Assembly (NCBI GenBank): GCA_958295915.1
Contig: OY282381.1
Location: 208,722-272,721, forward strand
Length of the DNA stretch: 64,000 bases
DNA from: an uncultured Caldilineaceae bacterium
GTDB lineage: Bacteria; Chloroflexota; Anaerolineae; Caldilineales; Caldilineaceae
Reading direction: 5' to 3'
The notes beneath the pieces are model-generated. The model was not told the DNA's origin and did no database searches. It worked only from the letters and a program-made list of their open reading frames with translations. Positions within the stretch are counted from its first letter, which is position 1. Every line of letters begins with the position of its first letter. This document shows positions 21,070 to 55,384 of this stretch, one piece after another. The position numbers and the translations under genes are program-made.

Positions 21070-24000
21070 TCATTTGGTCACCCCTTCCACCGCGGCGATC
21101 TCCTCCGCGGTCAGCCCGTAGAGCGCATACACCAGCCGGTCTATCTCAGCTTCCAACTCGCCGGTATCCGCGTCCGGGTCGACGTCTTTGGCGGACAGGA
21201 TACGCTCCACCAGGCGGATGAACGGACGCTGTTCTGCGGCGGTGATTCTGGGAATGGGCAGACTCTTTGCATCGTTGGGATAAAAATTCAAGCTATCGCT
21301 TAAAAAATTAAGGAAATACCAGTTCGTGAATTGAGAATTGAGAATCGCCAGCAGAAATTTGTAGTCAAACCGACTGGCTATTGCGGTGTCGGCGTTTCTT
21401 ACTGCACGAACCGCTGATGTATGCGTTGATCCGGAAAGCAAATCTAGTCGCACGCAGTTTATGACGGTGTGGCTGTTGTAAAAGCCTTCATCATCATAAG
21501 CGAACCGCAGCCTATCTTTCACAATACGGATCGACATCAGCTTTTCGTTTTCAAATAGCTGCGGGCACATCGGGTTGTAATGCTCATCCGGAGTGTAGGT
21601 CAGCCAGCCATCCTGCAAGAACGAGTAACGCGCGATGTTGCGTCCTTCGCAAAACTTTTTGCCGCCAGCGACCAGCGACGGACTTAGGTAGCGCGATTTG
21701 CCAATCTTGGCGGAGCGATGGTTGAGCCTGGCGCCGTAGGCAACCAAGCAGATCCGATCAAAGCGCATCGCGTTGCGCCATATCTTTTCTTTTATCTTGA
21801 TGGCGTCCGCCATGGCTGGATTCGTGTCCAAGCGGCAATCTTTGAGCGAGGTAAAGAAGGTCTGGTCGACCAGAAACTCGGTTCCACTGCGGTTCTCAAA
21901 ATCAGCGTTGCTGTGATGCAGGCGTATTCTCGTGGGTACGTTTTTTCTTTCCTTCGCAACCGTCAGAACAGCGTTGCGCACGACCGCATTCTCAAAAATC
22001 CGGTAGCTGCTGGCGTCCACCAATGCCTGAAGCGTGTGCTTTTGCACGAGCTTTTGGCGCATTTTCGTTGCATACCGCTGCTTGGTGAACGCGGCGGGGA
22101 TGATAAAGCATACCATTCCTCTGCCGTTGAGGACGGAAAGGGATTTTTCGAGAAAAGCGATGTAAATGTCCGTTCGTCTTTCGCAGGTTTGATACCTATT
22201 GAGCAGGTAACTTCGCATCTCGGCCGAAAGATTTTCGACATTCACATAGGGCGGGTTGCCGATGACCACATCGAAGCCGTCAGCGACGCCGAACATATAC
22301 TCGGCATCGAACCAGTCGGCGCTGGCGTTCTGGTCGTAGGGGTCCCAGCGGGCGATTCTTTGCGCGTCATCGGCGGGCATGCCGATATTCTGTAATTCCG
22401 CTGCCAAGCCCTCGCGCAACGCTTTGTCTTTTTTCCTGCACGCAAGTTTGCGGTGGCGCGTGATTGCATGAAAATACCGCTCGCGATTTTTAACCAACTC
22501 ATGCTCCAGATCCTGCGCTTTCTCGCTCGTCAGCATCCGTTCGCCTTTAAGACTGATGAGCGTATTGGCGGCGACGAAGCGGGTTTCGAGGTTGGGCAGG
22601 GGCTTGATGCCGAAGTTGGCGGCGTTGCGGTCGGGCTCCTGCTCGATGGCCAGGGAGATGAAGAAGCGCAATTTGGCGATCTGGGTGGCGATGGTCTGAA
22701 TGTCCACGCCGTAGACGCTGTTCTGGATCAGATAGAGCTTGCGCCCGAAGTCGGAGTCGCGGTAACGCTCGAAGGTATCGCTGATTTCGGCCAGTTCGGC
22801 ATCGCGCTCCCGCTGATCGCGCCTGTCAAAGGCCGAGGCCGCGCGGCGCCTGGCCAGGTCTTTCTGCAACTGCTCCCAGCGTCGGTTGTCGGGGTCGAGG
22901 CGGCGCAGGGCCAGGGTCAGCTTGTGTAGCGCGCCCATGGGGAAAGCGCCGGAGCCGACCGCGGGGTCGAGGATTTTCAATCCGGCGATGGCGCGCACAA
23001 GGCTCTCTTTTTCGCTCTCGGCAAAGAGTTCGTGGGCGTCGTTGAACGCGTCCTCGTAATCCAGCAGATAGCGCAGACGCTCGTGCCAGAAGTCGGCGTC
23101 GCCAGCGGCCGGCGGACATTTTTCCGCCAGGGCCGCGACCAGTGCCTCGTCCACCATGTAGTCCACCACCGGGCGCGGCGTGTAGTAGGAGCCGGTCTGC
23201 TTGCGCGCGCTCGCGCGCGTTTCGGGGTTGTAGGCGGCCAGCAGGTTCTCGAAGACCTTGCCCAGCAGCTCCGGGTCCAGGGCCACCTCCCGCTCGGCGG
23301 GCGTGTTCTCCTCGACCGTGAACTTGTAGCGGTTGAAGAGGGGGATCAGCCCGTCAGGGCCGAAGAACAGACGGTTGGGGATGGAGTAGTCCCGGCGCTG
23401 GTTGGCGTTGTCGCTGAAGCAGTCGATGCGACAGCCGCCCTGTTTGGGCGCTTCCTCGCTGTCCAGACAGTCGAACAGGCCGCCGTTGATGAAGGGCGTC
23501 TGCGCGAACAGCGCCAGCAGCGCGTCGGGGTCGGCGATCTCCTCCTTGTAGCGATAGAGGGAAAAGTTGCGGTGGTCGGCGTTCGTTTTCCTGGCGAATC
23601 GTCGCTGGTCGATGTCGGTGTTCAGCGTGGCGAAGAACAGGTTTTGCAGCACCGCGCGATAGTAGGAATCGCCCGAGTCACGGTCGTAGTCTTGCAGCAG
23701 CTTTTCGACTCGCGCCTCGATGAACAGGTCTTCGGCGATCAGCCCCTTATTGAACGGTGCAACGATGCCCAAAGGCTGGGAGGTTGCACCGTCCAACTCC
23801 CTGATGAACCAGACGAACAGCAGGCGCGTGATCAGGCGGATGACGTGCTCTTCGGCCGGCAGGGTCCTGGCTTCGTTGGCGGGAAAGGTAGCCTCCCTGA
23901 GCGCGCGGGTGAACCAGGCGAACAGGTCTTTGTAGAAGCGCCGGTTCAGTTCCTCGGTGTCCAGCGCGTCCAGCCAGGCGGCCAGCAGACCATCGAAGTT

Positions 24001-24618
24001 GTGCCGCGCGCCGCGCGCGTCCATCCAGCGCAGACGGTCTGCCAGGGCCAGTTCGGCCAGGATATCCAGATGGGCGCGCTGGGGGCTGGCGGGGTCGATC
24101 TCGCGTATCAGCGAGACGCTGCCCAGCACGGCGCGGTCGGGGGCGCGCCGGTTGGGGCGGCGGTGCACGAAAGCCAGGGTGAGCAGGTCCGCGGCGCTCC
24201 TGAAGAGGATGACAGTGGGCTGGCGCAGACGCTTGTTTATCTCGCGGGTGAATGCGGCATACTGGCCGCGCGCATACGACTGGCCGTTGAGTTCGACGGC
24301 GGCAAAAACAAAGCTCTTATTGTCGCCTGTGTCAAAGGCGCCGGCTGCGAAGTTTTGCGGATGCGCCGGGGAGATTTCGGAATCGGTTAGCTGGAACAGA
24401 ATCCGCGCTGCGGCGACGTTCTGGCGGAAGCGCTCCTCCGACTGCGTGCCGGGGTTCGCGGCGGGGAAATTGCCTATGAAATCGCCAACGTCGCCCGTCT
24501 GGCCGGGCAGCGTGCGCTCGCTGCGGTAGCCGAGGGCGGCCAGCAGGTCTGTCGCCGCGTCCGCTACGTCTCCTGCCGGCAGAGCAGCCAGCGCGGATTG
24601 GATTTCGTTCAGGCGCAT
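21070..24618 (-). CDS. Large Eco57I/type IIG-like restriction-modification enzyme
   Basis: 1182-residue DNA N6-adenine methyltransferase with long N- and C-terminal regions. The SAM-binding motif I is LDPAVGSGAFPMGAL (about residue 558) and catalytic motif IV is GNPPYVNV (about 786), as in Eco57I-type enzymes. The last 250 residues contain FLLAILNSQFTNWYF and IPRITAAEQRPFI, typical of a TaqI-like target-recognition domain. The N-terminal 500 residues probably contain the nuclease part, but no unambiguous PD-(D/E)XK set was confirmed. No separate methylase, specificity or BREX gene is near, so it probably acts alone. The 5' end is unusual: it emerges from a broken amidohydrolase gene. An in-frame GTG at 24642 would add VDCHVHLQ, which belongs to the amidohydrolase; ATG at 24618 is therefore preferred. 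Confidence 0.85.
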   Translation of the reverse strand: MRLNEIQSALAALPAGDVADAATDLLAALGYRSERTLPGQTGDVGDFIGNFPAANPGTQSEERFRQNVAAARILFQLTDSEISPAHPQNFAAGAFDTGDNKSFVFAAVELNGQSYARGQYAAFTREINKRLRQPTVILFRSAADLLTLAFVHRRPNRRAPDRAVLGSVSLIREIDPASPQRAHLDILAELALADRLRWMDARGARHNFDGLLAAWLDALDTEELNRRFYKDLFAWFTRALREATFPANEARTLPAEEHVIRLITRLLFVWFIRELDGATSQPLGIVAPFNKGLIAEDLFIEARVEKLLQDYDRDSGDSYYRAVLQNLFFATLNTDIDQRRFARKTNADHRNFSLYRYKEEIADPDALLALFAQTPFINGGLFDCLDSEEAPKQGGCRIDCFSDNANQRRDYSIPNRLFFGPDGLIPLFNRYKFTVEENTPAEREVALDPELLGKVFENLLAAYNPETRASARKQTGSYYTPRPVVDYMVDEALVAALAEKCPPAAGDADFWHERLRYLLDYEDAFNDAHELFAESEKESLVRAIAGLKILDPAVGSGAFPMGALHKLTLALRRLDPDNRRWEQLQKDLARRRAASAFDRRDQRERDAELAEISDTFERYRDSDFGRKLYLIQNSVYGVDIQTIATQIAKLRFFISLAIEQEPDRNAANFGIKPLPNLETRFVAANTLISLKGERMLTSEKAQDLEHELVKNRERYFHAITRHRKLACRKKDKALREGLAAELQNIGMPADDAQRIARWDPYDQNASADWFDAEYMFGVADGFDVVIGNPPYVNVENLSAEMRSYLLNRYQTCERRTDIYIAFLEKSLSVLNGRGMVCFIIPAAFTKQRYATKMRQKLVQKHTLQALVDASSYRIFENAVVRNAVLTVAKERKNVPTRIRLHHSNADFENRSGTEFLVDQTFFTSLKDCRLDTNPAMADAIKIKEKIWRNAMRFDRICLVAYGARLNHRSAKIGKSRYLSPSLVAGGKKFCEGRNIARYSFLQDGWLTYTPDEHYNPMCPQLFENEKLMSIRIVKDRLRFAYDDEGFYNSHTVINCVRLDLLSGSTHTSAVRAVRNADTAIASRFDYKFLLAILNSQFTNWYFLNFLSDSLNFYPNDAKSLPIPRITAAEQRPFIRLVERILSAKDVDPDADTGELEAEIDRLVYALYGLTAEEIAAVEGVTK

Positions 24619-24800
24619 TTGCAGATGGACATGACAGTCCACCCGCCGGGGCGCGCGTGGCAGCCAGCGGCGTCGATCTCGGCAGCGCCGTTCAACTCCT
24701 TGCCGCTGGCGGCGACCCGTTCACCATCGATGGCCAACTCGGCAGCAATCAGACCGGAAGGAGTGAGGAGATGCCCGTTCCTGATGATCAGATCAGGCAT
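24609..24800 (-). pseudogene. N-terminal remnant of an amidohydrolase (dihydroorotase/allantoinase-like)
   Basis: The open frame reads MPDLIIRNGHLLTPSG...AIDGERVAASG, the standard N-terminus of cyclic amidohydrolases, up to ARPGG. The expected continuation GGVDCHVHLQ, with the metal-binding HxH pair, is present but in another frame, so one base is missing at about 24642-24643. Right after HVHLQ the sequence becomes the start of the large modification enzyme, and the rest of the amidohydrolase is absent. The ATG overlaps the TGA of the nitroreductase gene (ATGCCTGA), so it was once coupled to that gene. The 63-residue remnant peptide, if made, ends just past the ATG of the modification gene and could couple its translation. 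Confidence 0.75.
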
Positions 24801-40322: not shown

Positions 40323-41321
40323 TCACTCCACTCCCAGTTGCTCCGGCTCGAGTTGATGCCAGAACACTTCACCAGATTCGATGCTGTCCTGAATTCGCTC
40401 GTCTCGATACAGGCCGGCTACTGCCGCATAAGAGCGTTTCCCGGTGAACCGCGTCAAGAACCCAGCGTTGCGGATGGCCCTGGTGGTATCTCTTCCATTG
40501 GCGGTGAATGAGATTTCCACGGCGATGTAGCAGATTTCCCGGTCTTGGCCCGTGGTTTCCATAATCAGATCGGCCCGGCGGAAGCTCCTTAGCTCGTTGG
40601 TGGGAATGTTCGCCGTGTCGGCCGAATCGGTCAGATCCCAAATATCTTCCCGGGTGAGGGTCTTCGTTCGCCAGAGGCCCATATCTCTGGCGATGGCGAT
40701 GGCGTCCTCAAGCGCGGCATTTCTGGCATGAGCGCCCTTTAGCGGCGTCAGGTCGTCGCGGATTTTCTGAATGGTGACATCGATCTTATCGAATCTGGCA
40801 TCGTGCCCATCTAACCGAGCGTCGATCCCATCTAACCGAGCGTCGATCTTATCGAATCTGGCATCGTGCCCATCTAACCGAGTGTCGATCCCATCTAACC
40901 GAGTGTCGATCCCATCTAACCGAGCGTCGATCCCATCTAACCGAGTGTCGATCTTATCGAATCTGGCATCGTGCCCATCTAACCGAGCGTCGATCCCATC
41001 TAACCGAGTGTCGATCTTATCGAATCTGGCATCGTGCCCATCTAACCGAGTGTCGATCCCATCTAACCGAGTGTCGATCTTATCGAATCTGGCATCGTGC
41101 CCATCTAACCGAGCGTCGATATTGTCCAGGCGCTTATTCGTGGCTGTCACAAACCTGTTCATCTCTGCCCTGAACTTGTTCATCTCTTCGACGAACCTGG
41201 CGAAGTTTTGAGGCAGCTCCAACAACTCGCGCGTCAGCAGCCGCGCGCGCAGAGCTTCGACCCACTCAGGGCGCTCGTCCAGAATCCGAATCAGATCTTC
41301 CATCGTATTGATAGTGATCAT
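40323..41321 (-). CDS. Heptad-repeat coiled-coil protein with nuclease-like C-terminus
   Basis: 332 residues. The first 60 form a helical region (EDLIRILDERPEWVEALRAR, then NKFRAEMNRF). Residues 64-182 consist of 17 uninterrupted heptads of the form RLDGIDA, RLDGHDA and RFDKIDT, which would make one long coiled coil. The C-terminal 130 residues contain RRADLIMETTGQDREICYI, VEISFTANGRD and TRAIRNAGFLTRF; the D...E-x-S spacing suggests a PD-(D/E)XK-like fold with the lysine replaced by serine. The start at 41321 has GGAGAGGTG upstream. It lies 193 bases after the helicase gene on the same strand and could belong to that cassette. Alternatively it is one of the many free-standing coiled-coil nuclease-like proteins of such genomes. 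Confidence 0.65.
   Translation of the reverse strand: MITINTMEDLIRILDERPEWVEALRARLLTRELLELPQNFARFVEEMNKFRAEMNRFVTATNKRLDNIDARLDGHDARFDKIDTRLDGIDTRLDGHDARFDKIDTRLDGIDARLDGHDARFDKIDTRLDGIDARLDGIDTRLDGIDTRLDGHDARFDKIDARLDGIDARLDGHDARFDKIDVTIQKIRDDLTPLKGAHARNAALEDAIAIARDMGLWRTKTLTREDIWDLTDSADTANIPTNELRSFRRADLIMETTGQDREICYIAVEISFTANGRDTTRAIRNAGFLTRFTGKRSYAAVAGLYRDERIQDSIESGEVFWHQLEPEQLGVE
40776..41132 (-). repeat. Tandem 21-base repeat encoding coiled-coil heptads
   Basis: Seventeen in-frame 21-base units of three main types are arranged in a higher-order pattern of 63 bases. Adjacent units are nearly identical, so the array has probably expanded and contracted by slippage or recombination. Confidence 0.9.
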
Positions 41322-41514
41322 AATCACCTCTCCTGCCCAATTATCTGTAAAAGGGCCCGCAGTCAACGCTAAAGGCGTCGGCTCTCTCATCTTCTGGCGC
41401 ACAAGCGTTCTTGTGTCCAGTTGAACAATGCAACGATGCCCGGCAACTGGGAAATCATCCCAATCATACCCCAATCCGCCGCGAAGAACAAAGGATTTTC
41501 AGCAGGGAAATGGA

Positions 41515-44500
41515 TCATCCTATTGTTTGCCGCAAAAACTCGGCCGCCAGTCCGCGTGACAGCACGTGGTGAAACGGCTGGTTGCGAAAGTGCCAGAGGC
41601 ATTGGTGACATGCCGTTTCTTCCCCACATTCACAGCCATCTATGTGCTCATAAGCCATACGAAAAACATCGGGCAGCGCTTCATTCACACGTCGCATATG
41701 GCCAGCCCCACCGGGCACATCATCGTACAGAACCAAGGCCGGTGTCTGGCCAGGCGTGTAGTGGTAGATCGTCCCATTTACGTCATCACGGCGAATACCA
41801 AGCGACTGACTGGCCCCTTCAATGAAAGCGTACAGCAGCGAATACCAGATGTTTTTCTCGCCATGGTCCGGTTGGCTGTTGTAGTGCATGGGAAGCGAGC
41901 CAGTCAGTTGAATTTCCAGCACATCGGTGATGAAGCTATGTCCCAAGCGGCGCTGTATCGGGTTTTCGCCGGGGCAGTCCCGGCCATTTCGAGGATCCTT
42001 ATGCTTGATATTCTGCTTTGATCTCCTTCGTCTGCGGTTACGCCCGCGCCCGCCGGCACCCGATTCATTCGTTTGCATCGTTGATGCTGGAATGGATTGC
42101 GCATAACCGCACAGCGAGCAAATGTGAAAGCCATACCCATTGGGGCCATGATTGACAAGGACAAGCTGCCCATAACGGGAATAACGGGTGCTGATGACGA
42201 TATCAGTCTTGGTCAATTGTGGATGGCGCACAACCGTTTCCTGATGATCTTGCTCAGGTATATCTCCATTTTGCGGTCGAGCATAATCGCTGAAGTATAC
42301 TCGCGACGTATACTGGCGTGGCGGGCGCGCTTCGCCCGATTCAGCCAGGCTTCGGTCCGCCAGAAAGCCAAATTCTGGCCGGATCATTACCCCGCTCCTA
42401 AACGGTCTATGTGCCGGCAGATTATGGCCACACTGACATTGTGGGATAGGCTGATCGCCTTGTTGCAAATTGAACCGCTGACATTGCGGGCAAATGGCGA
42501 AAGCCTCCGGCTCCCACCCCTTGTCCGGCAATTTATAGATACCACCTCCTGTCCATATTTTCTTGGCAGCCACCAGCTTGGACCCTGGCGCGAACTCCGA
42601 AATGGCGACGCGCAGATCACGTTGTAGCTCAACACGCTGCGCCACATCGTTGTCTTCTACATAGTCGGTGATGAATTCCACCACATCTACGGGAAAACCA
42701 TATTTGGGCAACACGTTGTGCTGGCCGAAGAAGTTGAGCAAGTCACGGTTGGTTATCGTGTTGCGAATCTTCTGCAACGCGCCAGCACGCGGGTACTTCT
42801 TGTCGTCAACAGCCTGTTGGATCTGCTCCTCATAGTAGTTCAGTTGCTCTTGCACCTTTTGCGTGGCCAAGTCAAAGACTTTACGAAGCTCGTTCAGCCA
42901 ACCCCAGTCAGCCACTCCCAATTCGGCCTGAAGATGGGAAGGCACAAGGCGAGTCAGAGCCTGACGCACATCGTCCGGTCGTTGTGCCAGATATTGGCGA
43001 AACAACTCACTACCCGGAATCAGGTCGCTTTCTGGATCAAAAAAAGGGCCGACTCGCATTTCCCGGCGCTCACGGAAACGGTCGTGTTCGTCTACGCACC
43101 AACGCAAAAAGGCGGCAATTAGCACCGAATGCATATGTCGTTGGACGATTTTAGGATTGTGTACAGCCACGACCGGCGTGGGCACACGGCCGGCTACGAT
43201 TTTCTTGGGCTCCCGGTAATGGGCCAAATCATGGGAGCGACGTTGGGCAAAGGTGAGGGCGAACGCGGCCGCGGCCGCGCGGCGACCAGCGCGACCGGCG
43301 CGTTGCACGTAATTCGCCGTGGCCGGGGGAACGTTGCGCATCAGCACGGCCTGCAGTTCGCCAACATCCACGCCCAATTCAAAGGTGGTCGAACAGGAGA
43401 GGACGTTCACATCGCCGCGCACAAACTGATTCTGCACCTTACGCGCTTCTTCGGCTGTCCATTGGGCCGTATGTTCTTCCACCTTGATCGCTGTCGGTAA
43501 GAAAGTCTCCTGATACAGGTCGCGGTAATGGTTCTCCAGACGGCTCAGATCATCTGGCGTAATGGCTTCTAATTGCCCTTGACAGCCGTAGGTCGTGCAT
43601 ATGCCGCGTAGGGAATCGTAAGCCAGATTGCGACACTGGTTGCACTGCCAAAGTTGTGAGTCTGTCTGTATCGGCGCCCATTCCCAGAAGGCGTAATCCA
43701 ATTGATAGCCAACGCCGCGCCGTCGGGGCAACTGAGAAGCGACCAGATAGCCATGTTTTCGCCAAAGACTATCAGGCGGACTCAGGTGATTTTCCCAGAG
43801 GGCCTGTAGGGCTTCTTTGGCAATGGATCTCCGTCCCGATGCCGACAGATCGGGCGCGGCTTTCGCCAGCATTTTCTCCAAGATGTCGAGTCGGGCGTTG
43901 GAAGCCCGTGCTGGCAACCAGCGCAAAATGGTACGCGGCAGTTTTTCGCCAGTGTGCGGCTGGCCAGTGACAAAATACTTTCGATTGCGCGGGGCGAAAG
44001 CTTCATTTTCAGGATCGACCTGGCCAGGAAAGCGGAAGACCATGTTACGTCGCAAGGTATCCAGCAACAGCCGCACCAAGACCTTTGCTTCGGTCGCGCT
44101 CAGATTCCAGGGCGACGCTAGCAAGGGCGCAGGCGCCTGCCAACCTGGCGGCCAGCGCAGGCGCAGATGCAACAGCCCCAATCCCTCCAGGCTCTGGTTT
44201 CGGTCGTAGGGACTCAATTCCTGCATGAGCCAGGTGCGCATCGCCCGCATTTTCTGGGTGCGGCTTTCTCGAACATCAAAGATGCCGGCTTTCTCAGTCT
44301 GTTCTCGCAAATATTCGGCCAGATCCTCCAGAGTTAACTCCCCTCTGCGCGCGGCTGCGTCCTGTTGCAAAGAGTTGTAGATCAGACGACGGCGCAGGAT
44401 ATTGTTGTATGTGCGCTCCAGGTACGGGGCAAAGAACGCTGCATCCTGGCGGCTATCGGCGAAGATGAGAAGTTTACGCCCCTCTCCCGGTTTTTCTATC

Positions 44501-46476
44501 ATCTCTTCGTCGGGGTCGGTAGGCAGTTCGGTGTACAGGGCAGTGGCCAGCACACTCACCGGCGCATCCTGGCCGGTCAGGAAACGGTAGACCCCGCCGC
44601 CGCGAGAGCGGGTAGCGCATTGGGGGCAGTACATGCGTTCTTGCTCTGTGCCATCAAAGGGAGCTTTGTGTACCGGGCGCGGCGTCTGGCAAGAGCATGT
44701 CAACGATTCGTTCCTGTCAACAAGCTGTCCGCAACGCAGGCAGAGGGTGTGTACCTGCCAGTCATCGCCATCGGGTGACTCTTCTACCTGTTCGTCTTCA
44801 TTCGTTTCTGGCAAATCATCGCTGAGAATGAAGTAGCGCAGCGGCCGTTCTTCGGCCCCATATCCCCCTTTGGGAATGCGCAAATACGCGGCGCGTTGGC
44901 CGTGGCGCGTCTCAATTTTTTCCTCAGCCACAATGTAGGCAATGCCACAACGGGCGCATGTGGCAATCTCAAAGACCTGCTCCTCACACTCAGGGCAGCT
45001 TTCGTGACGACCGAGGAACAGATGGAGTTGGCGGTCGGCATGTCCATCTCTGTGAAAGCAGGCAAAGGCTCCTTCCAGGGCGCGGGCAAAGACATGATAA
45101 CGGGCCGGAATTAACGGCAAGCTGTCACCATCCGCTCGCGCCCGCACCGCCAGATTTATCAACTGGATTGCGGCCTCTTGGGCGGCCTCTGCCCCCAGTT
45201 CGGGAAACAAAGTGTGGGCGATATTAGTCAAGAAATCCGGCTCACGTTGCAGATCGCGTTGTAGACTGTGCAGTCGCTGATCGCCGCGCAAAACCTCATA
45301 GAGTGCCCAGTTGGCGTCCGCGGCCTTTTGTACGGCCGTTACGACTGCATCGGGCAAACGATGATGCTGGCAGGCGGTGGAAATGGCTGCGGGTGTCGGG
45401 GTATCCTGTCGATTGTCAAAAAGCTGACTTAACTCGGCGTACAACTCGGCCGCGCCCGCGCCCCAGGGTGCGCCCAATTCGCTTACATCCTTCCGTTCTG
45501 CCCCAAAGACATCCTTGGCGCTGAAAAATTCGCCAAAAAGCTGTTTAGCAAATTCGGCCGCTTTGGGGAAATCCTCGCGCCCTTCTCCTAACGTCGCTGA
45601 GGTAGCGATACAGGTGAGGCGTCTTGGTTCACTCTGCGCAATTCGATCTTTCAAGCGACGCAGCAGCATCGCCACCTCAATGCCGCTGGCGCCGTCGTAG
45701 ACATGCGCCTCATCCACTACAATAAAGCGCCAGTGTTGGTCGGTGGGACCATCAAACAGCACTGTGTCTTGGGGGCGGAGGAGCAGGTATTCCAGCATGG
45801 CGTAGTTGGTGAGAAGGATATGAGGCGGGCTCTCCTGCATCTCCTCACGCGCGAGCAGTTCGTTGGGCAATGGTTCGGTGCCCCACTCTTCGCGGAACTG
45901 TTGTAAGGCGTTCACACGGGTGTAACGGGTTTCGCCAATATACCGCCCGAATGTGATAGCCTGATAGTTCTCGAGCAATGTGCGCAGGCGCTTGAGTTGA
46001 TCATTCGCCAATGCATTCATAGGATAGAGGAGTAAGGCGCGCACACCGGGCTGTCCTAGTGTACCGGCTTCTTCCTCGCGCAAGAGATGATCGAGGATAG
46101 GGATGAGGAAACTCTCTGTCTTCCCCGAACCTGTCCCAGTTGCCACAATCAGGTTGTGCCCGCGTTCTACGACATTCCGTACCGCTCTTTCCTGGTGGAC
46201 GTATAATGGCCGATCATAGGGCAGCGTATCCGGTCGGCAGAGGTTGTCGAAACCGGGATGCAGTATATTTTCGTTCACCAGATCGTTGATGGATCGTTCA
46301 GTTTTGAACGGCGGAGAGGCTTCCAGAAAAGGACCCTTAACCAAACGTGCCGGTTCGTCCAATTTTTGCCAAAAGGCGCGGCGCAGCTCTTCGGTGCGGA
46401 ACGGATAGATGGTCTTCAGGTATCGTTTGTAGGCATTGGCGATTTTCTGCGTAGTCTTGATGGGGTGCAGGCTCAT
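41515..46476 (-). CDS. Very large DEAH-box helicase with DUF1998-type C-terminus
   Basis: 1653-residue superfamily 2 helicase of the COG1205 (YprA/MrfA-like) group. Motifs: Walker A VATGTGSGKTESF (about 109-121), LLYPMNALANDQ, LLTNYAMLEYLL, DEAH box VVDEAHVYDG (about 250), CIATSATLGEG (about 287), FADSRQDAAFF in the second helicase lobe, ELGVDVGELQAVL and QRAGRAGRR (about 1055). Four cysteine pairs or clusters lie between the lobes (CPECEEQ, CLRCGQL, MYCPQCATR, WQCNQCRNL). The C-terminal DUF1998 region ends with VLYDDVPGGAGHM and a metal-binding CECGEETACHQCLWH. Helicases of this class are central to Druantia and DISARM phage defence. The ATG overlaps the stop of the partner gene by four bases. 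Confidence 0.88.
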   Translation of the reverse strand: MSLHPIKTTQKIANAYKRYLKTIYPFRTEELRRAFWQKLDEPARLVKGPFLEASPPFKTERSINDLVNENILHPGFDNLCRPDTLPYDRPLYVHQERAVRNVVERGHNLIVATGTGSGKTESFLIPILDHLLREEEAGTLGQPGVRALLLYPMNALANDQLKRLRTLLENYQAITFGRYIGETRYTRVNALQQFREEWGTEPLPNELLAREEMQESPPHILLTNYAMLEYLLLRPQDTVLFDGPTDQHWRFIVVDEAHVYDGASGIEVAMLLRRLKDRIAQSEPRRLTCIATSATLGEGREDFPKAAEFAKQLFGEFFSAKDVFGAERKDVSELGAPWGAGAAELYAELSQLFDNRQDTPTPAAISTACQHHRLPDAVVTAVQKAADANWALYEVLRGDQRLHSLQRDLQREPDFLTNIAHTLFPELGAEAAQEAAIQLINLAVRARADGDSLPLIPARYHVFARALEGAFACFHRDGHADRQLHLFLGRHESCPECEEQVFEIATCARCGIAYIVAEEKIETRHGQRAAYLRIPKGGYGAEERPLRYFILSDDLPETNEDEQVEESPDGDDWQVHTLCLRCGQLVDRNESLTCSCQTPRPVHKAPFDGTEQERMYCPQCATRSRGGGVYRFLTGQDAPVSVLATALYTELPTDPDEEMIEKPGEGRKLLIFADSRQDAAFFAPYLERTYNNILRRRLIYNSLQQDAAARRGELTLEDLAEYLREQTEKAGIFDVRESRTQKMRAMRTWLMQELSPYDRNQSLEGLGLLHLRLRWPPGWQAPAPLLASPWNLSATEAKVLVRLLLDTLRRNMVFRFPGQVDPENEAFAPRNRKYFVTGQPHTGEKLPRTILRWLPARASNARLDILEKMLAKAAPDLSASGRRSIAKEALQALWENHLSPPDSLWRKHGYLVASQLPRRRGVGYQLDYAFWEWAPIQTDSQLWQCNQCRNLAYDSLRGICTTYGCQGQLEAITPDDLSRLENHYRDLYQETFLPTAIKVEEHTAQWTAEEARKVQNQFVRGDVNVLSCSTTFELGVDVGELQAVLMRNVPPATANYVQRAGRAGRRAAAAAFALTFAQRRSHDLAHYREPKKIVAGRVPTPVVAVHNPKIVQRHMHSVLIAAFLRWCVDEHDRFRERREMRVGPFFDPESDLIPGSELFRQYLAQRPDDVRQALTRLVPSHLQAELGVADWGWLNELRKVFDLATQKVQEQLNYYEEQIQQAVDDKKYPRAGALQKIRNTITNRDLLNFFGQHNVLPKYGFPVDVVEFITDYVEDNDVAQRVELQRDLRVAISEFAPGSKLVAAKKIWTGGGIYKLPDKGWEPEAFAICPQCQRFNLQQGDQPIPQCQCGHNLPAHRPFRSGVMIRPEFGFLADRSLAESGEARPPRQYTSRVYFSDYARPQNGDIPEQDHQETVVRHPQLTKTDIVISTRYSRYGQLVLVNHGPNGYGFHICSLCGYAQSIPASTMQTNESGAGGRGRNRRRRRSKQNIKHKDPRNGRDCPGENPIQRRLGHSFITDVLEIQLTGSLPMHYNSQPDHGEKNIWYSLLYAFIEGASQSLGIRRDDVNGTIYHYTPGQTPALVLYDDVPGGAGHMRRVNEALPDVFRMAYEHIDGCECGEETACHQCLWHFRNQPFHHVLSRGLAAEFLRQTIG

Positions 46477-49400
46477 AGGCGCTCCTCTTCTCGTTCATCA
46501 TCCAACTGCGGGCGAATCCACTCTAGCTTTTCGTTCTGTTTCAGTCGGCTTCGAGCCTGGGATTGTCCGGCGTGCATGGACTCATGGTGCTGTACATAAC
46601 CAGATATGTCGCTAAACAACTGCTGACAGCACTGACACTGATACGGATTGTGGGTGTTAAAATGCAGTAAACAGTTATATAAATCCAGACGCACGGATAC
46701 GGTAAAGGGCGACAACTGAAGGCTCCCATCAGCATAACAGTCACCTGAAAGCGGGGCGCAATACCGGGCCTGGCCGGTATGTCGATCACGCAAGCTATGG
46801 ATAATGATCGGCCCGACGCTGGTATCCAGAGTTATTTGCGGCCAAATCCAGCTTACTGCCAGGTGAGCTTGACGGGTTAATTCTCGCAGTAGTTCAGCGG
46901 CGTCCTGGCTGCCCTGAACCGCCAAATACTCAGCGGCGTCTTGATGATTGTTTTTAAGTAGGGTAACAGCCTCACTGAGCAACAATGAGGCATCATCCAC
47001 CTCTTCCAATAGAGTAGCCATGACTGTGTGAAAGGCAGCTTTATCCAATGACAGGCTACACAGTAACTCCAGGCAACGTTTTCGCGGCGCAGCGCGTAGC
47101 CCGCTCTGCAATACCCACAAATGCAACCTTTCCAAAGGTTTGTCAACCCGCAAATGTTGGAAGTATCGCTCTAATTTATCGTCCGGAAAATCGCTTTGTG
47201 CCAATCGATCAACGACCAGCTGATCAAACATCCGGATTCGTGTCAGATTGTAAGCTGTACTATCCAGTTTACGAGTTGTTTCAGCCCAGCGCACCAGCCA
47301 AGCTAGGGAGAGAGACTCTCGCTGGTCCGCCAGAGTCTTGTTAGTGTTGTGAAATTCAACCTGTTGGCCGTTGTAGAACTGATGGACGAACAGAGCCAGC
47401 AGTTGTTCGGCGTCAGCCTCACCCTGATCACGCAGCCGGGCTATCTCGCTATAGTGTTGCGCCACCCCTGGTGACTCGATCAGGGTAGTATTCGGCTGCG
47501 CAGGGTCAGGCCGCTGGGGTTGCTGACTGGCCCAAGGGTTATAGGTCGCAATTTCTCCCAGATAGGCCCCGGCCGGCAAATTACTCTTGGGAAGTTGCCA
47601 TTCAGCCAGCGTTATATCCGTATCCGGCATACGGAGTGTGATTGGCGTATCTACCCAGGGTCGGTCCCGCGACCAGAGACGTAACTCCTTGTGTCTCGGT
47701 TGGGAATTCGCCCAGAAGAGGGTTAGCTGTACCTTCTCGGCAGTCTCCTGCCATTCATACAGGACTTCGCCCAAATTCAGTTCGGGCAACAGATAGAGCG
47801 CGTCCACTGTAACCGGTTCATCCTGGCCCTCAACAAGAATCTCTAACTGCCAGCGTAGGGGCTCCTGTTGTTCCCGCCAGAGGCCCAATACTTCAGACAT
47901 CGGAAACGTCACCAAGCGCTGTAACAATTTCCGATCCGGGGGCACTTCTCGCAAGATTTGTCCATCATCGTCCAACAAGCGCCAGCCAATGTGTAATTCC
48001 GGGCCTCCGGCAAAAAGGGGCAGTATCACGTGCAATTCAGCATTCGCTCCGAGGCCACTTGGGAATAGAGAGAGCGGTTGTGTCTGCCACTTCCTTTCAT
48101 TATCTGTTGTCAGCCCGGCATGGAGTGACCAGCGCAAGCGCTGAATGGGAATGGACAATGGGATGGCGATGCCGATTTCATGCCTCAGTTGGAGCGTTAC
48201 TTGCGGAATGGGCGCCTCAACAGTGAGGATGTATTCTCGTCGGTTCTCACTCAACCAAAGTTCTCTCAGAACTACTCCCGCCTGCGGTGGATTGGGGCGA
48301 ATCGTTGTCGCCACGTCACAGGTGATGCGAAGATGCGCTGGTTCATCTGGTGGCGCCAAGTAGAGCGTATCATGCCCTTCAATGGTGATTGGAGGCACCC
48401 CGCGCAGGCCCAGTGTGTAATTGTGACCTAACAGACCGCGTACCGTGATCTCGAATTTACCGATAGGCTGGCACCCCAGCAATCGCGAATCGGCCAAATC
48501 CAGGTGAACGCTGTCATCCTGTTCCTGTCGTTGAAAAGAAAGGCTCGATAGAGGAAAACTGCGATACCCGGCCGGTTGCGCATTTCCGTCCGCACGCACC
48601 GATACACGCCAGCGCTGTGGCTGGGTCGTATGAATCACCAGGGCAGGGGGGTGGCCACAGTAGAGAGGGAAATCGTTATGCGTCAGGCCAGGCAGCGGTC
48701 GTTCGCCGCCATCAAGATACGGTTGTTTGCGGCGTCTTTCGTGGATAATGGAAAAATGATGCGCGGGTTGGTCATTGCCATCCAATAGCGTCAGTTTTCC
48801 AGGGGTCAGTTGCCACACGTTCAGACAATACCCACGCCAGGCCTCAGTTAGTTGAGGCAACTGGCGTATACGACGGCTCTCCCCACTCGCCTGCAGAGAA
48901 AATGTGTCAGGATAAAGCAGCCAACGTTCCCCCGATCTATGCCGTTCCTGCTCGTCCAATGCATCTGCTTCGTAATCGTCAAAGGGATCGAAGACCATCA
49001 GGGGCAACGTACCCAATCCCGGCAAGACCCACTCCTGCAAAGGTTCTTCATCCGCAACCAATTCCACCAGGTATTCCTCTGTAGGAGGAACTGAACACAA
49101 CTCCGTAGTGGCGGTGTAACGGTAGCTGTTCTCAATCCGCTGTCGGTTTGTGTGGATCATTTGGGTGTGACTCCCGGCGGTTACGCGCCATGACATTTCT
49201 CTCGGCGCATCCCGACTGGGTATTTGCTGTGGAGGCAAATAGAGCGTCACACCCTCGGTGTAAGGCGCGACAGTGAGCACTGGCCGTTGCAAGCGGATTG
49301 GGGAGCGCAACGGCCGTGAATGGATCTCACCGGTTTGCTGCTCTTGCCATGTGCGGTAGGCGCTCTGGACTCGCTCTGGTAGACCCAATGCATCGATTTC

Positions 49401-50063
49401 TGACTCTGTGGTGACACGAAACAGATCCAGGCAACGCGCGACAAAATCCTCAGCCACAAGGCCACCATACCGTAAAAAGCGAGACACTGGCTTAGGCAGA
49501 CCTGCCAGATCATCCACTTGCTGTCGCCATGTTGCCACCAATGTCTGCGCGTCTATGACAATGCGATGAGGCTGCACTTCATATCGATACAGAAAGTCAA
49601 AAAACTCCTCTAAGAATCTATTGGGGATTCCACCATGTAACAGAATGGGTGTTACATATCGGAGTCCACTGCTTTGCTCGAAGGTAGGCAGGTTGTATTG
49701 CGCGAGAATATTAAGGAAAAGCTGCCCACAAGGGGTCGTGTGATTACCGCCTATCTTCAGTCGTTTTTTGGGACCGTGCCAGTATAACCCTGCAGCGCCA
49801 TAGTGATGAACACCTTCAAGCACTAAATAGAGAACAAAGGTTAAGGGCCATTCGGTGAACACTTGGCGAAGTTTGACGTCAATCGATGCTCCCTGCTGCA
49901 AACGATAAAAAATCGTTCCATACAGCAGGTCGCCAATCTCCCCTAAATGCTGTTGCGTATATCCCAACTCACCAATAGTTAAGTCACCTTCACCCACATC
50001 TTGGCGGAGGCGACTTTCCCATTGATCCAGCTTTTTTCGGTTGGAAGCCATATCCCAGAACAT
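46473..50063 (-). CDS. Unknown 1196-residue partner protein with C-terminal C2H2 zinc finger
   Basis: No known family is recognised. The N-terminal 300 residues are mainly helical, including FTEWPLTFVLYLVLEGVHHY and a possible winged-helix-like start. The middle (about 300-870) is predicted mostly beta, rich in short strands (for example FEITVRGLLGHNYTLGLRG), like stacked Ig-like domains. About 900-1120 is helical. The end carries CQCCQQLF, SDISGYVQ and HHESMH, which fits C-x2-C-x3-F-x5-(Y)-x2-H-x4-H exactly, at about 1141-1163. It is translated just before the helicase with a four-base overlap, so the two proteins very likely act together. By position it matches the large accessory protein of helicase-based defence systems such as Druantia type III (DruH), but homology was not established. 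Confidence 0.75.
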   Translation of the reverse strand: MFWDMASNRKKLDQWESRLRQDVGEGDLTIGELGYTQQHLGEIGDLLYGTIFYRLQQGASIDVKLRQVFTEWPLTFVLYLVLEGVHHYGAAGLYWHGPKKRLKIGGNHTTPCGQLFLNILAQYNLPTFEQSSGLRYVTPILLHGGIPNRFLEEFFDFLYRYEVQPHRIVIDAQTLVATWRQQVDDLAGLPKPVSRFLRYGGLVAEDFVARCLDLFRVTTESEIDALGLPERVQSAYRTWQEQQTGEIHSRPLRSPIRLQRPVLTVAPYTEGVTLYLPPQQIPSRDAPREMSWRVTAGSHTQMIHTNRQRIENSYRYTATTELCSVPPTEEYLVELVADEEPLQEWVLPGLGTLPLMVFDPFDDYEADALDEQERHRSGERWLLYPDTFSLQASGESRRIRQLPQLTEAWRGYCLNVWQLTPGKLTLLDGNDQPAHHFSIIHERRRKQPYLDGGERPLPGLTHNDFPLYCGHPPALVIHTTQPQRWRVSVRADGNAQPAGYRSFPLSSLSFQRQEQDDSVHLDLADSRLLGCQPIGKFEITVRGLLGHNYTLGLRGVPPITIEGHDTLYLAPPDEPAHLRITCDVATTIRPNPPQAGVVLRELWLSENRREYILTVEAPIPQVTLQLRHEIGIAIPLSIPIQRLRWSLHAGLTTDNERKWQTQPLSLFPSGLGANAELHVILPLFAGGPELHIGWRLLDDDGQILREVPPDRKLLQRLVTFPMSEVLGLWREQQEPLRWQLEILVEGQDEPVTVDALYLLPELNLGEVLYEWQETAEKVQLTLFWANSQPRHKELRLWSRDRPWVDTPITLRMPDTDITLAEWQLPKSNLPAGAYLGEIATYNPWASQQPQRPDPAQPNTTLIESPGVAQHYSEIARLRDQGEADAEQLLALFVHQFYNGQQVEFHNTNKTLADQRESLSLAWLVRWAETTRKLDSTAYNLTRIRMFDQLVVDRLAQSDFPDDKLERYFQHLRVDKPLERLHLWVLQSGLRAAPRKRCLELLCSLSLDKAAFHTVMATLLEEVDDASLLLSEAVTLLKNNHQDAAEYLAVQGSQDAAELLRELTRQAHLAVSWIWPQITLDTSVGPIIIHSLRDRHTGQARYCAPLSGDCYADGSLQLSPFTVSVRLDLYNCLLHFNTHNPYQCQCCQQLFSDISGYVQHHESMHAGQSQARSRLKQNEKLEWIRPQLDDEREEERL

Positions 50064-50121
50064 GTTGGATCCCTAATCTCACCAAAAGGATACAATAAGA
50101 GCGATCTGCGCCGGAGACAGA

Positions 50122-51261
50122 TCACTGATACGCCAACGAGCTGTCCGGCCGCAGAAGGAACGGTCGGCGCCATGAGCGCCCCGGATACGCGTCCAGGGCT
50201 TCCAGATTCAGGTCGATGCCCAGCCCTGGGCGCTGTGGCAGTTCCAGATACCCGTCTACCAGCTTCATTGGCTCATCAACGATCTCGGCCCGCTGGTCTT
50301 CGTCGACCTTGTATTCCAGAATCAGGAAGTTCGCTGTGCTGGCGGCGAAATGAACATTGACCGCGGTCGCTATCGGCCCGCACGGGTTATGCGGCGCGAC
50401 GCTGGCATAGTGGACTTCGGCCATGGCCGCTATCTTTTTCATCTCCCACAGGCCGCCGGTCAGACAGATGTCCGGCTGAATGATGTCCACGGCGTGATGG
50501 CCCAGCAGTTCCCGAAATTCGTGGCGGCTATAGAGCATTTCACCGGTGGCAATGGGCACGTTCACCTTTTGGCTGAGCTTTGCCAGCGCCTCATAGTTCT
50601 CGGGACGCAGGGGCTCCTCCACAAAAAGCGGACGAAACGGGGCCACCACTTCACACAGTTGCGCGGCCCGACCGATCTCAAATAGCCGCGCGTGGGCATC
50701 GAGACCGATGTCAACGTCCGGCCCGACCGCTTCGCGCACGGCAGCTACCCGACGCTCCGTCTCGCGCAGAGCCTGATTCCAGGGCATCGCTTGCCAGTCT
50801 GGCGGCAGAGGTCCCATCTTTAAGGCGGTGAATGCATAAGTTTGGATGAGCTGCTCGGCATTGTCTGCCGCCTCCTCCGGTGTACTGCCGTCCACGCTCT
50901 GGTAGACGCGGATGCGTTCGCGAGCTTTGCCCCCAACCAGCCGGTAGACTGGCAGGCCAGCGGCTTTGCCGGCGATGTCCCACAGGGCGTGTTCGATACC
51001 GCTGATGGCAGCGTTGACGACGGAGCCGCCGGGAAAGCGGCTGCCCGCGTACATCAGATGATACAACCCTTCTATATCCCTGGGATCCCGGCCAATCAGC
51101 CACTCTTCGAAGTCATGGATGGCAGCGACCGTCGCTCGATCCGGCCCGCAAGAGAAGGCTTCGCCGACGCCGTAGATCGCCTCGTCCGTATACACGACAA
51201 CGAACGGGATTGAGCGATGACCCAGCTCGGTCAGGCGTGTTTCAATGTGTGTGATTTTCAT
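50122..51261 (-). CDS. Enolase-superfamily sugar-acid dehydratase (galactonate-dehydratase-like)
   Basis: Mandelate racemase/muconate lactonising enzyme family member, 379 residues. The barrel carries ALKMGPLPPDW (about 152), the metal ligands in GLDAHARL (Asp, about 197), FVEEPLRPEN (Glu, about 223) and ATGEMLYSRHEF (Glu, about 249), and VAPHNPCGPIATA (His, about 300), an order seen in D-galactonate dehydratases. The predicted reaction is dehydration of an aldonic acid to a 2-keto-3-deoxy acid. A strong promoter is at 51291-51319. The gene is divergent from the phosphatase and inositol genes. Confidence 0.85.
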   Translation of the reverse strand: MKITHIETRLTELGHRSIPFVVVYTDEAIYGVGEAFSCGPDRATVAAIHDFEEWLIGRDPRDIEGLYHLMYAGSRFPGGSVVNAAISGIEHALWDIAGKAAGLPVYRLVGGKARERIRVYQSVDGSTPEEAADNAEQLIQTYAFTALKMGPLPPDWQAMPWNQALRETERRVAAVREAVGPDVDIGLDAHARLFEIGRAAQLCEVVAPFRPLFVEEPLRPENYEALAKLSQKVNVPIATGEMLYSRHEFRELLGHHAVDIIQPDICLTGGLWEMKKIAAMAEVHYASVAPHNPCGPIATAVNVHFAASTANFLILEYKVDEDQRAEIVDEPMKLVDGYLELPQRPGLGIDLNLEALDAYPGRSWRRPFLLRPDSSLAYQ

Positions 51262-54908: not shown

Positions 54909-54994
54909 CCTGTTAGCAGGCTTGCAGCTGGCTTTAGCCGTCAATGCGAGATGCGAACATCGAGAGTCGTGGATGCGAATCGGGGAGAGACCTT

Positions 54995-55384
54995 ATGAGT
55001 ACGGTCTCTGTTTCAAAGATAACCGCTCACAACTACAAGAATATCCGATTAGGGAATGGAATCGACTTCGGACCACTCAATATATTTATTGGACCGAACG
55101 GTTCGGGAAAAAGCAATGTAATATCACTTCTCCAGTTTCTCCAGGAAAGCAAAAAAACGCAGATAATCGTAAGTACTCATAGCCCGGATCTTCTGGATCA
55201 TTTCACCGACCAGCTCGATGAATGTAGTTTCATTTATATTTTCGAACATGATAAAGATAGCCAGAATCACTTCACTCCCAAACGACTAGACCGGCATGAA
55301 ATTGCTGGTTGGCTTGGAGATGGATGGCAATTAGGCGATTTATACAGGGTTGGCAATCCCGCAGTTGGGGGGTGGCCATGGTAG
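54995..55384 (+). pseudogene. Internally deleted AAA ATPase (OLD/RecF-like)
   Basis: 129 residues. The start SKITAHNYKNIRLG and Walker A FIGPNGSGKSNVISLLQFLQ are those of an SMC/OLD-like ATPase of about 350-400 residues. Directly after Walker A the sequence jumps to TQIIVSTHSPDLLDHF, the D-loop/H-loop region found near the end of such proteins, then RLDRHEIAGWLGDGWQLGDLY, the usual C-terminus. Signature and Walker B are missing, so about 230-280 residues have been deleted in frame. The ATG has GGGGAGAG upstream. It overlaps the next fragment, as such ATPases do with their partner genes. It lies between iolC and iolE. Confidence 0.75.

What the first reader, a model, noticed from the sequence alone, without database searches (positions are those of the whole stretch)
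41515..50063. Candidate helicase-based defence system: C2H2-tailed giant protein plus DUF1998 helicase
Seen: two genes of 3.6 and 5.0 kb overlap by four bases. The helicase has all SF2 motifs, several cysteine clusters between its lobes and a DUF1998-type C-terminal cluster; the partner has no recognised family. Known: DUF1998 helicases are core parts of DISARM (DrmA/DrmB) and Druantia (DruE). Druantia type III also pairs one large unknown protein with a large helicase. Inference: a two-gene antiviral system, either a divergent Druantia III relative or a new type. A broken AAA ATPase pair and a restriction enzyme elsewhere in the window show that this genome region gains such genes.
Basis: partly seen in the sequence, partly recalled or inferred. 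Interest (0 to 1): 0.75.

Follow-up and report, generated by a model that had tools for sequence, protein, structure and literature searches.

The report
Divergent Druantia III antiphage gene pair
This is a two-gene bacterial antivirus system, a distant nuclease-less relative of the known Druantia type III, whose sensor-like protein ends in a zinc finger that some related bacteria have exchanged for a whole transcription (sigma) factor.

Summary
Two intact genes (1196 and 1653 aa) overlap by four bases (ATGA). The helicase is DruE (PADLOC DruE profiles, up to 734 bits). The partner has no Pfam, NCBIfam or PADLOC match, but its family profile aligns with E. coli DruH over 620 columns (hhalign 95.4%, E 1.7e-8; shuffled and reversed controls at most 0.1%). 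Its predicted architecture also fits DruH. The helicase ends right after its DUF1998/MZB domain, without nuclease, and falls in a clade with nuclease-less actinobacterial DruE. This points to the published 'Druantia III-B' branch; a mycobacterial Druantia III lacking a nuclease domain blocks phages experimentally. The pair co-occurs in 41 of 47 related DruE loci, and in 7 of 7 genomes found through the partner. It is patchy (9 of 301 Chloroflexota). Sixteen same-genus genomes lack it at this site; one of them carries it elsewhere. New here: the partner's C-terminus is a swappable module. Most Chloroflexota have a conserved C2H2 finger, as in the window; several Chloroflexia have a sigma-70 factor there; Actinomycetota have neither. 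Verdict: new variant of a known defence kind. The mechanism is inferred from tested relatives.

The parts
46473..50063 (-). druH-like gene (1196 aa), probable infection sensor
   Evidence: ORF; hhalign of its family to E. coli DruH, Prob 95.4, E 1.7e-8, 620 columns, controls at most 0.1%; no PADLOC DruH profile hit
49335..50063 (-). DruH N-terminal helical domain (residues 1-243), with the 'HGGIP' motif at 143-147 that matches 'EGGLP' of E. coli DruH
   Evidence: AF2 model, mean pLDDT 82.6; alignment
47475..49295 (-). array of Ig-like beta-sandwich domains (residues about 257-863)
   Evidence: AF2 secondary structure; Foldseek PDB hits are mostly tandem Ig-like arrays; viral hits include tail-tip J, minor tail and tail-fibre proteins
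46869..47465 (-). C-terminal helical repeat region (residues 867-1065)
   Evidence: AF2 models; no significant PDB match
46572..46637 (-). C2H2 zinc finger, residues 1143-1164
   Evidence: invariant residues; in several Chloroflexia this place holds a sigma-70 factor
46473..46476 (-). four-base overlap ATGA of druH stop and druE start (translational coupling likely)
41515..46476 (-). druE gene (1653 aa), YprA-family SF2 helicase without nuclease domain
   Evidence: PADLOC DruE1 733.5 bits, DruE3 661 bits; best PDB match is E. coli DruE 9tu7, E 4e-128
45577..46197 (-). DruE RecA-like lobe 1 (DEAD, residues 94-300)
   Evidence: PF00270, E 1.1e-22
44617..44997 (-). inter-lobe zinc-binding module (residues 494-620, five CxxC/CxC pairs)
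   Evidence: cysteine positions, cysteines invariant in A2
43279..43509 (-). DruE RecA-like lobe 2 (Helicase_C, residues 990-1066)
   Evidence: PF00271, E 8.9e-12
41596..41832 (-). DUF1998/MZB zinc-binding domain (residues 1549-1627), 26 residues before the C-terminus
   Evidence: PF09369, E 3.2e-16; no HKD motif, no domain after it
41315..50106 (.). extent of the insertion relative to same-genus genomes: essentially the two genes alone
   Evidence: blastn homology to syntenic loci ends near 41314 and resumes at 50107-50126

Best explanation
The pair is a horizontally acquired, minimal Druantia type III system of the nuclease-less (III-B) branch. The 1196-aa protein is a divergent DruH, the infection sensor. 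Its N-terminal helical domain and Ig-like array probably bind a late phage structural protein (tail or baseplate). Its C-terminal helical/beta/C2H2 part probably touches DNA. Once triggered, it licenses the 1653-aa DruE, a YprA-family helicase that loads on 3' single-stranded tails of replicating or uncircularised phage DNA, and so stops phage DNA circularisation and replication. DruE has no nuclease of its own, so cutting, if any, must come from DruH or host nucleases. Shown here: gene structure, DruE family, remote DruH homology, co-occurrence and co-divergence, mobility, absence of a nuclease domain, conserved C2H2. Inferred from tested relatives: phage sensing, helicase substrate preference, replication block, abortive outcome. 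Inferred here only: DNA contact by the C2H2 module.
For: DruE: PADLOC DruE1/E3 profiles score 733/661 bits against 86 for DpdJ and 59 for DrmA; a profile search of the PDB puts E. coli DruE 9tu7 first (E 4e-128). DruH: profile-profile 95.4%, E 1.7e-8, collinear over residues 32-729 against 33-714; the actinobacterial subset alone gives 95.2% and the Chloroflexota subset 93.9%; controls at most 0.1%. The predicted domain order (helical 1-243, Ig-like about 257-863, helical and beta C-terminus) follows the published E. coli DruH (Ig-like domains from 257; PMC13192584). Mycolicibacter carries a 1132-aa homologue directly upstream of a 1651-aa DruE; the M. smegmatis system shown to block phages has DruH of 1132 aa and DruE of 1667 aa (PMC13316683), neither with a canonical nuclease domain. 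Linkage 41/47 and 7/7. DruE and DruH distances correlate, r=0.935, Mantel p 0.0005, DruH always the faster (23% vs 46% mean identity), as published for E. coli. Sites without the pair and patchy distribution. GC 53-56% against about 61% in the flanking genes.
Against: DruH homology is remote (13% identity); plain HMMER searches between the two DruH families find nothing and no PADLOC DruH profile hits. Foldseek against the PDB did not list DruH 9tud among the top 50, though that library may not contain it. Part of the hhalign signal comes from Ig-like repeats, which look alike in unrelated proteins, and the Chloroflexota subset alone aligned only from about 323 to 736. The M. smegmatis sequences could not be fetched, so the link to the tested system goes through Mycolicibacter and matching lengths. 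No phage assay exists for any Chloroflexota pair that I found.
Confidence: 0.78

Rival explanations
1. A separate two-gene YprA-helicase defence system whose large partner resembles DruH only by convergence (Ig arrays), so not Druantia III in the strict sense.
For: No PADLOC DruH hit, HMMER negative both ways, distinct C-terminal modules, the best-scoring DruE profile is type I.
Against: hhalign 95% with a collinear alignment that includes the helical N-terminus and the GG(I/L)P motif; the actinobacterial subset alone aligns from profile position 25; controls are flat; gene order is identical.
Confidence: 0.15
2. Housekeeping DNA-repair helicase of the YprA/MrfA type with an accessory protein.
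For: DUF1998/MZB helicases include MrfA/YprA repair helicases (PMC12458937).
Against: Patchy: 9 of 301 Chloroflexota genomes; absent from the syntenic site in 16 same-genus genomes and at another place in G015; no MrfB-like neighbour; the partner diverges fast.
Confidence: 0.02
3. A decayed TALON or other Chloroflexota YprA system that lost its nuclease genes.
For: NERD-UvrD genes follow DruE in L023, L024 and L025; TALON is Chloroflexota-centred and carries a NERD nuclease (PMC12458937).
Against: No TPR-CSD, TBP or NERD gene beside the pair in the window; the DruH-like partner is the constant neighbour, the downstream genes are variable.
Confidence: 0.03

Closest known systems
Druantia type III-B branch (PMC12458937; tested example probably M. 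smegmatis MSMEG_1253-1254, PMC13316683)
   Same: Two genes, druH then druE, overlapping; DruE about 1650 aa with DEAD, Helicase_C and DUF1998 and no nuclease; homologous large partner (Mycolicibacter relative, E 5e-29).
   Different: Partner only about 16% identical to the Mycolicibacter one over aligned columns; C2H2 finger absent from the main actinobacterial proteins; host phylum Chloroflexota. That the M. smegmatis pair is of the III-B branch is my inference from its size and lack of nuclease.
Druantia type III-A of E. coli (PMC13192584; PDB 9tud, 9tu7)
   Same: DruE helicase core; DruH remote homology over about 680 residues; DruH diverges faster than DruE.
   Different: E. coli DruE is 2104-2108 aa with two PLD domains, the window DruE stops after MZB; DruH C-terminal parts do not align; PADLOC DruH3 profiles miss the window protein.
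ARMADA, TALON, BRIGADE (PMC12458937)
   Same: YprA-family helicase with inter-lobe zinc modules.
   Different: No BrxHII, PglX, NERD, TBP or deazaguanine genes beside the pair; ARMADA-like helicases fall outside the DruE clade.
DISARM DrmA/DrmB
   Same: SF2 helicase with a DUF1998 module.
   Different: In DISARM the DUF1998 part is a separate gene; here it is fused; DrmA profile score 59 bits against 733 for DruE.

Membership tests
Druantia type III | DruE: YprA-family helicase with fused DUF1998/MZB and inter-lobe zinc modules | tested here: met
Druantia type III | DruH homologue directly upstream in the same operon | tested here: met
   Only at profile-profile level: Prob 95.4, E 1.7e-8, controls flat; gene order and overlap
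Druantia type III | DruH recognised by PADLOC DruH3 profiles (operational detection, not a biological definition) | tested here: not met
   0 hits at E up to 10 for the window protein and 5 homologues; the Mycolicibacter homologue is also missed, so the profiles do not cover this branch
Druantia type III | Only two genes, without DruA-D (type I) or type II genes | tested here: met
   Neighbours are an enolase-superfamily-like gene and a resident coiled-coil gene unrelated to Druantia
Druantia type III-A | C-terminal PLD nuclease domains in DruE | tested here: not met
   Protein ends 26 residues after MZB, no HKD motif
Druantia type III-B | DruE in the separate, mostly nuclease-less clade | tested here: inconclusive
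   FastTree places it in a 43-44-row clade of Chloroflexota and Actinomycetota DruE (support 86 and 99) outside III-A and a cyanobacterial DruE, and it lacks a nuclease; but reference GIH50614.1 itself was not available
Druantia type III | Antiphage activity requiring both genes | not testable with these tools
   No wet-lab data for the Chloroflexota pair
Druantia type III | DruH fold as in PDB 9tud | tested here: inconclusive
   AF2 model has the same order of parts, but 9tud was not among the hits listed and may not be in the library
TALON | NERD nuclease, TPR-CSD and TBP genes; RNase H fold at the helicase C-terminus | tested here: not met
ARMADA | BrxHII-like and PglX-like genes in the operon; Vsr domain | tested here: not met
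   helicase outside the ARMADA-like group in the tree
DISARM | Helicase and DUF1998 protein encoded separately, methylase in the operon | tested here: not met

The most novel reading that the evidence does not exclude
DruH is a modular sensor whose C-terminal output part is exchangeable. Chloroflexota proteins carry a conserved C2H2 finger; several Chloroflexia carry a complete, RpoD-like sigma-70 factor in the same place (regions 1.2 to 4). This would mean that DruH acts on promoters or RNA polymerase, by watching phage takeover of transcription or by switching on defence genes, rather than only as a nuclease-type partner of DruE.
Probability: 0.3. Interest if true: 0.75.

Novelty: new variant of a known kind. 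Interest (0 to 1): 0.5.

Why it matters
It extends Druantia III to a branch that the PADLOC profile set cannot recognise as complete, because its DruH profiles miss these partners. The minimal form has no nuclease in the helicase, which sharpens the open question of what DruH and DruE do to phage DNA. The exchange of a zinc finger for a sigma-70 factor at the same end of DruH is a concrete, testable clue to what the DruH C-terminus contacts, a part whose role is still poorly defined in the published systems.

Tried and rejected
A single-sequence scan of genome contigs with the partner found nothing; a helicase-family alignment was needed. A scan of viral contigs found no relative of the partner and only distant helicases. 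The downstream coiled-coil gene 40323-41474 was considered as a third component and rejected: three close paralogues elsewhere in the genome, and orthologues at the same site without Druantia in five same-genus genomes. Foldseek and VIA-align on the whole DruH model return generic Ig arrays with low TM-scores, so they show the domain type only; DruH 9tud did not appear in the rows shown. The C-terminal region folded alone has no significant PDB match. The M. smegmatis DruH could not be obtained; fixed-position comparison of its published mutated residues with the Mycolicibacter proteins does not match position by position, and loose offsets of a few residues are too weak to cite as proof. The rotated-alignment control gave 70.8%, but the shift shows that it recovers the same region, not a false match. 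No flanking repeats were found at the insertion ends.

Full report
What is there. Two intact genes lie on the minus strand: 46473-50063 (1196 aa) and 41515-46476 (1653 aa), overlapping as ATGA. The genome is one 5.06 Mb contig, and its nearest relatives carrying the pair are Caldilineaceae (Chloroflexota). The helicase has the SF2 motifs, zinc clusters between the lobes and a DUF1998/MZB domain that ends 26 residues before the C-terminus, with no PLD, Vsr or RNase H domain after it. The window holds the only close copy in the genome.

The helicase is DruE. PADLOC DruE profiles score 734 to 448 bits, against 86 for DpdJ and 59 for DrmA. A profile of six homologues finds E. coli DruE (9tu7) as the best solved structure. 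In a FastTree of 58 helicases the window sits with Chloroflexota and Actinomycetota DruE, outside E. coli-type III-A and outside a cyanobacterial DruE whose preceding genes suggest type II. Bell et al. (PMC12458937) describe such a branch as Druantia III-like or III-B, most often without a nuclease. Their reference protein was not available here, so the branch assignment is an inference.

The partner is a remote DruH. Single-profile searches find nothing. With 37 homologues (15-65% identical to the window protein; A3) against seven III-A DruH proteins (A4), hhalign gives Prob 95.4, E 1.7e-8 over 620 collinear columns, residues 32-729 against 33-714 of E. coli DruH. This includes 'RYVTPILLHGGIPNRFLE' against 'GYLHTLACEGGLPIRMIE'. 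Reversed and 15 column-shuffled controls stay at or below 0.1%. Actinobacterial and Chloroflexota subsets reach 95.2% and 93.9% separately. The AF2 model (pLDDT 82.6) has a helical domain to residue 243, Ig-like sandwiches to about 863, a helical repeat to 1065, then a beta domain and the C2H2 finger. Published E. coli DruH has helical N- and C-terminal regions, Ig-like domains starting at residue 257 and a beta-rich part beside the C-terminal domain (PMC13192584). The homology remains remote: HMMER alone does not see it.

The pair is a unit and moves as one. A DruE-based scan gave 79 loci; of 47 with a DruE of this group, 41 have the partner directly upstream. Of the other six, L045, L047 and L054 have little or no upstream sequence, and in L043 the partner appears to follow DruE, as in locus L190, which holds a DruE and a partner of the same lengths. 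Searching with the partner instead, all 7 further genomes have an adjacent DruE. Pairwise identities of DruE and DruH correlate at r=0.935 over 32 loci (Mantel p 0.0005) and DruH is always the more divergent. The system is patchy (9 of 301 Chloroflexota). In 16 same-genus genomes the enolase-like gene right of the pair is present without the pair beside it; in nearly all, the quinone-oxidoreductase-like gene left of it is found close by, with either a short gap or a coiled-coil gene between them, and only the window has the extra ~8.8 kb. G015 carries the pair at 0.45 Mb while those flanks are at 2.73 Mb. GC is 53.0-56.1% against about 61% in the flanking genes.

What it does. Two tested relatives frame the mechanism. 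In M. smegmatis a two-gene Druantia III (DruH 1132 aa, DruE 1667 aa, no canonical nuclease domain) stops phage DNA circularisation and replication, needs both proteins, and is triggered by a minor tail protein (PMC13316683). A Mycolicibacter partner in my set (1132 aa, beside a 1651-aa DruE) matches the window family at E 5e-29. In E. coli, DruE prefers 3'-tailed DNA, and DruH is a likely sensor with a J-like, Ig-rich front and a dimerisation-dependent nuclease activity (PMC13192584). I therefore infer: DruH senses a late phage structural protein, then DruE engages phage DNA. The absence of a nuclease domain in DruE is shown here; which protein, if any, cuts DNA is open.

What is new. The C-terminal end of this DruH family differs between groups. 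Most Chloroflexota members, the window included, end in a C2H2 finger with invariant C1143, H1159 and H1164. Six Chloroflexota loci (L027, L028, L029, L030, L039 and L184) carry instead a sigma-70 factor in the same protein (Pfam regions 1.2, 2, 3 and 4 with E down to 6e-24). In L028 the listed frame does not keep the end of the sigma part, and for L184 only the region 2 motif was checked. The main actinobacterial group has neither. No paper in the library holds both 'Druantia' and 'sigma factor'. Genes after DruE vary: NERD-UvrD in L023-L025, PglZ in L041 and L050, HARE-HTH in L028, a second DUF1998 helicase in L031.

Verdict. The locus is a new variant of Druantia III (III-B-like), with antiphage function likely but untested for this phylum.

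Noticed in passing
L027:3936-7973, L029:310-4380, L030:4569-7982, L039:3739-7773, L184:7360-11433 (-): DruH homologues fused at the C-terminus to a sigma-70 factor in one open frame (regions 1.2-4 by Pfam in the first four; L184 by the region 2 motif only). L028 has the same fusion with an apparent frame break. The PADLOC 'MzaA' hits of L027 and L030 overlap this sigma part.
   Followed up: partly
L023:13102-15210, L024:12984-14663, L025:12870-14555: NERD nuclease-UvrD-like proteins directly downstream of DruE, a possible nuclease supplied by a separate gene; NERD is also the nuclease of TALON systems.
   Followed up: partly
L041:6999-8978, L050:5416-7404: PglZ-domain proteins overlapping the end of DruE by four bases, as if BREX parts were added to Druantia.
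   Followed up: no
L031:6427-10743: A second DEAD-MZB helicase (1438 aa) directly follows DruE.
   Followed up: no
L190:269-7542: Reversed gene order: DruE first, DruH-like protein (855 aa) second, overlapping by four bases.
   Followed up: partly
window 40323-41474 (-): Coiled-coil protein with a degenerate repeat (LDGIDARLDGHDARFDK) and a possible nuclease-like C-terminus; three close paralogues in the genome and orthologues at this site in five same-genus genomes, so a resident and not part of the system.
   Followed up: yes
window 54944-55384 (+): Short AAA ATPase ORF that matches the start and the end of HEC-01A-type proteins, so probably an internally deleted remnant.
   Followed up: partly
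window 21070-24642 (-): Type IIG restriction-methylation enzyme (Eco57I and TaqI_C domains).
   Followed up: partly
L100 (NZ_CP127005.1): An E. coli plasmid carries Zorya II, Druantia III-A and SNF2/methyltransferase genes that look like ARMADA side by side.
   Followed up: no
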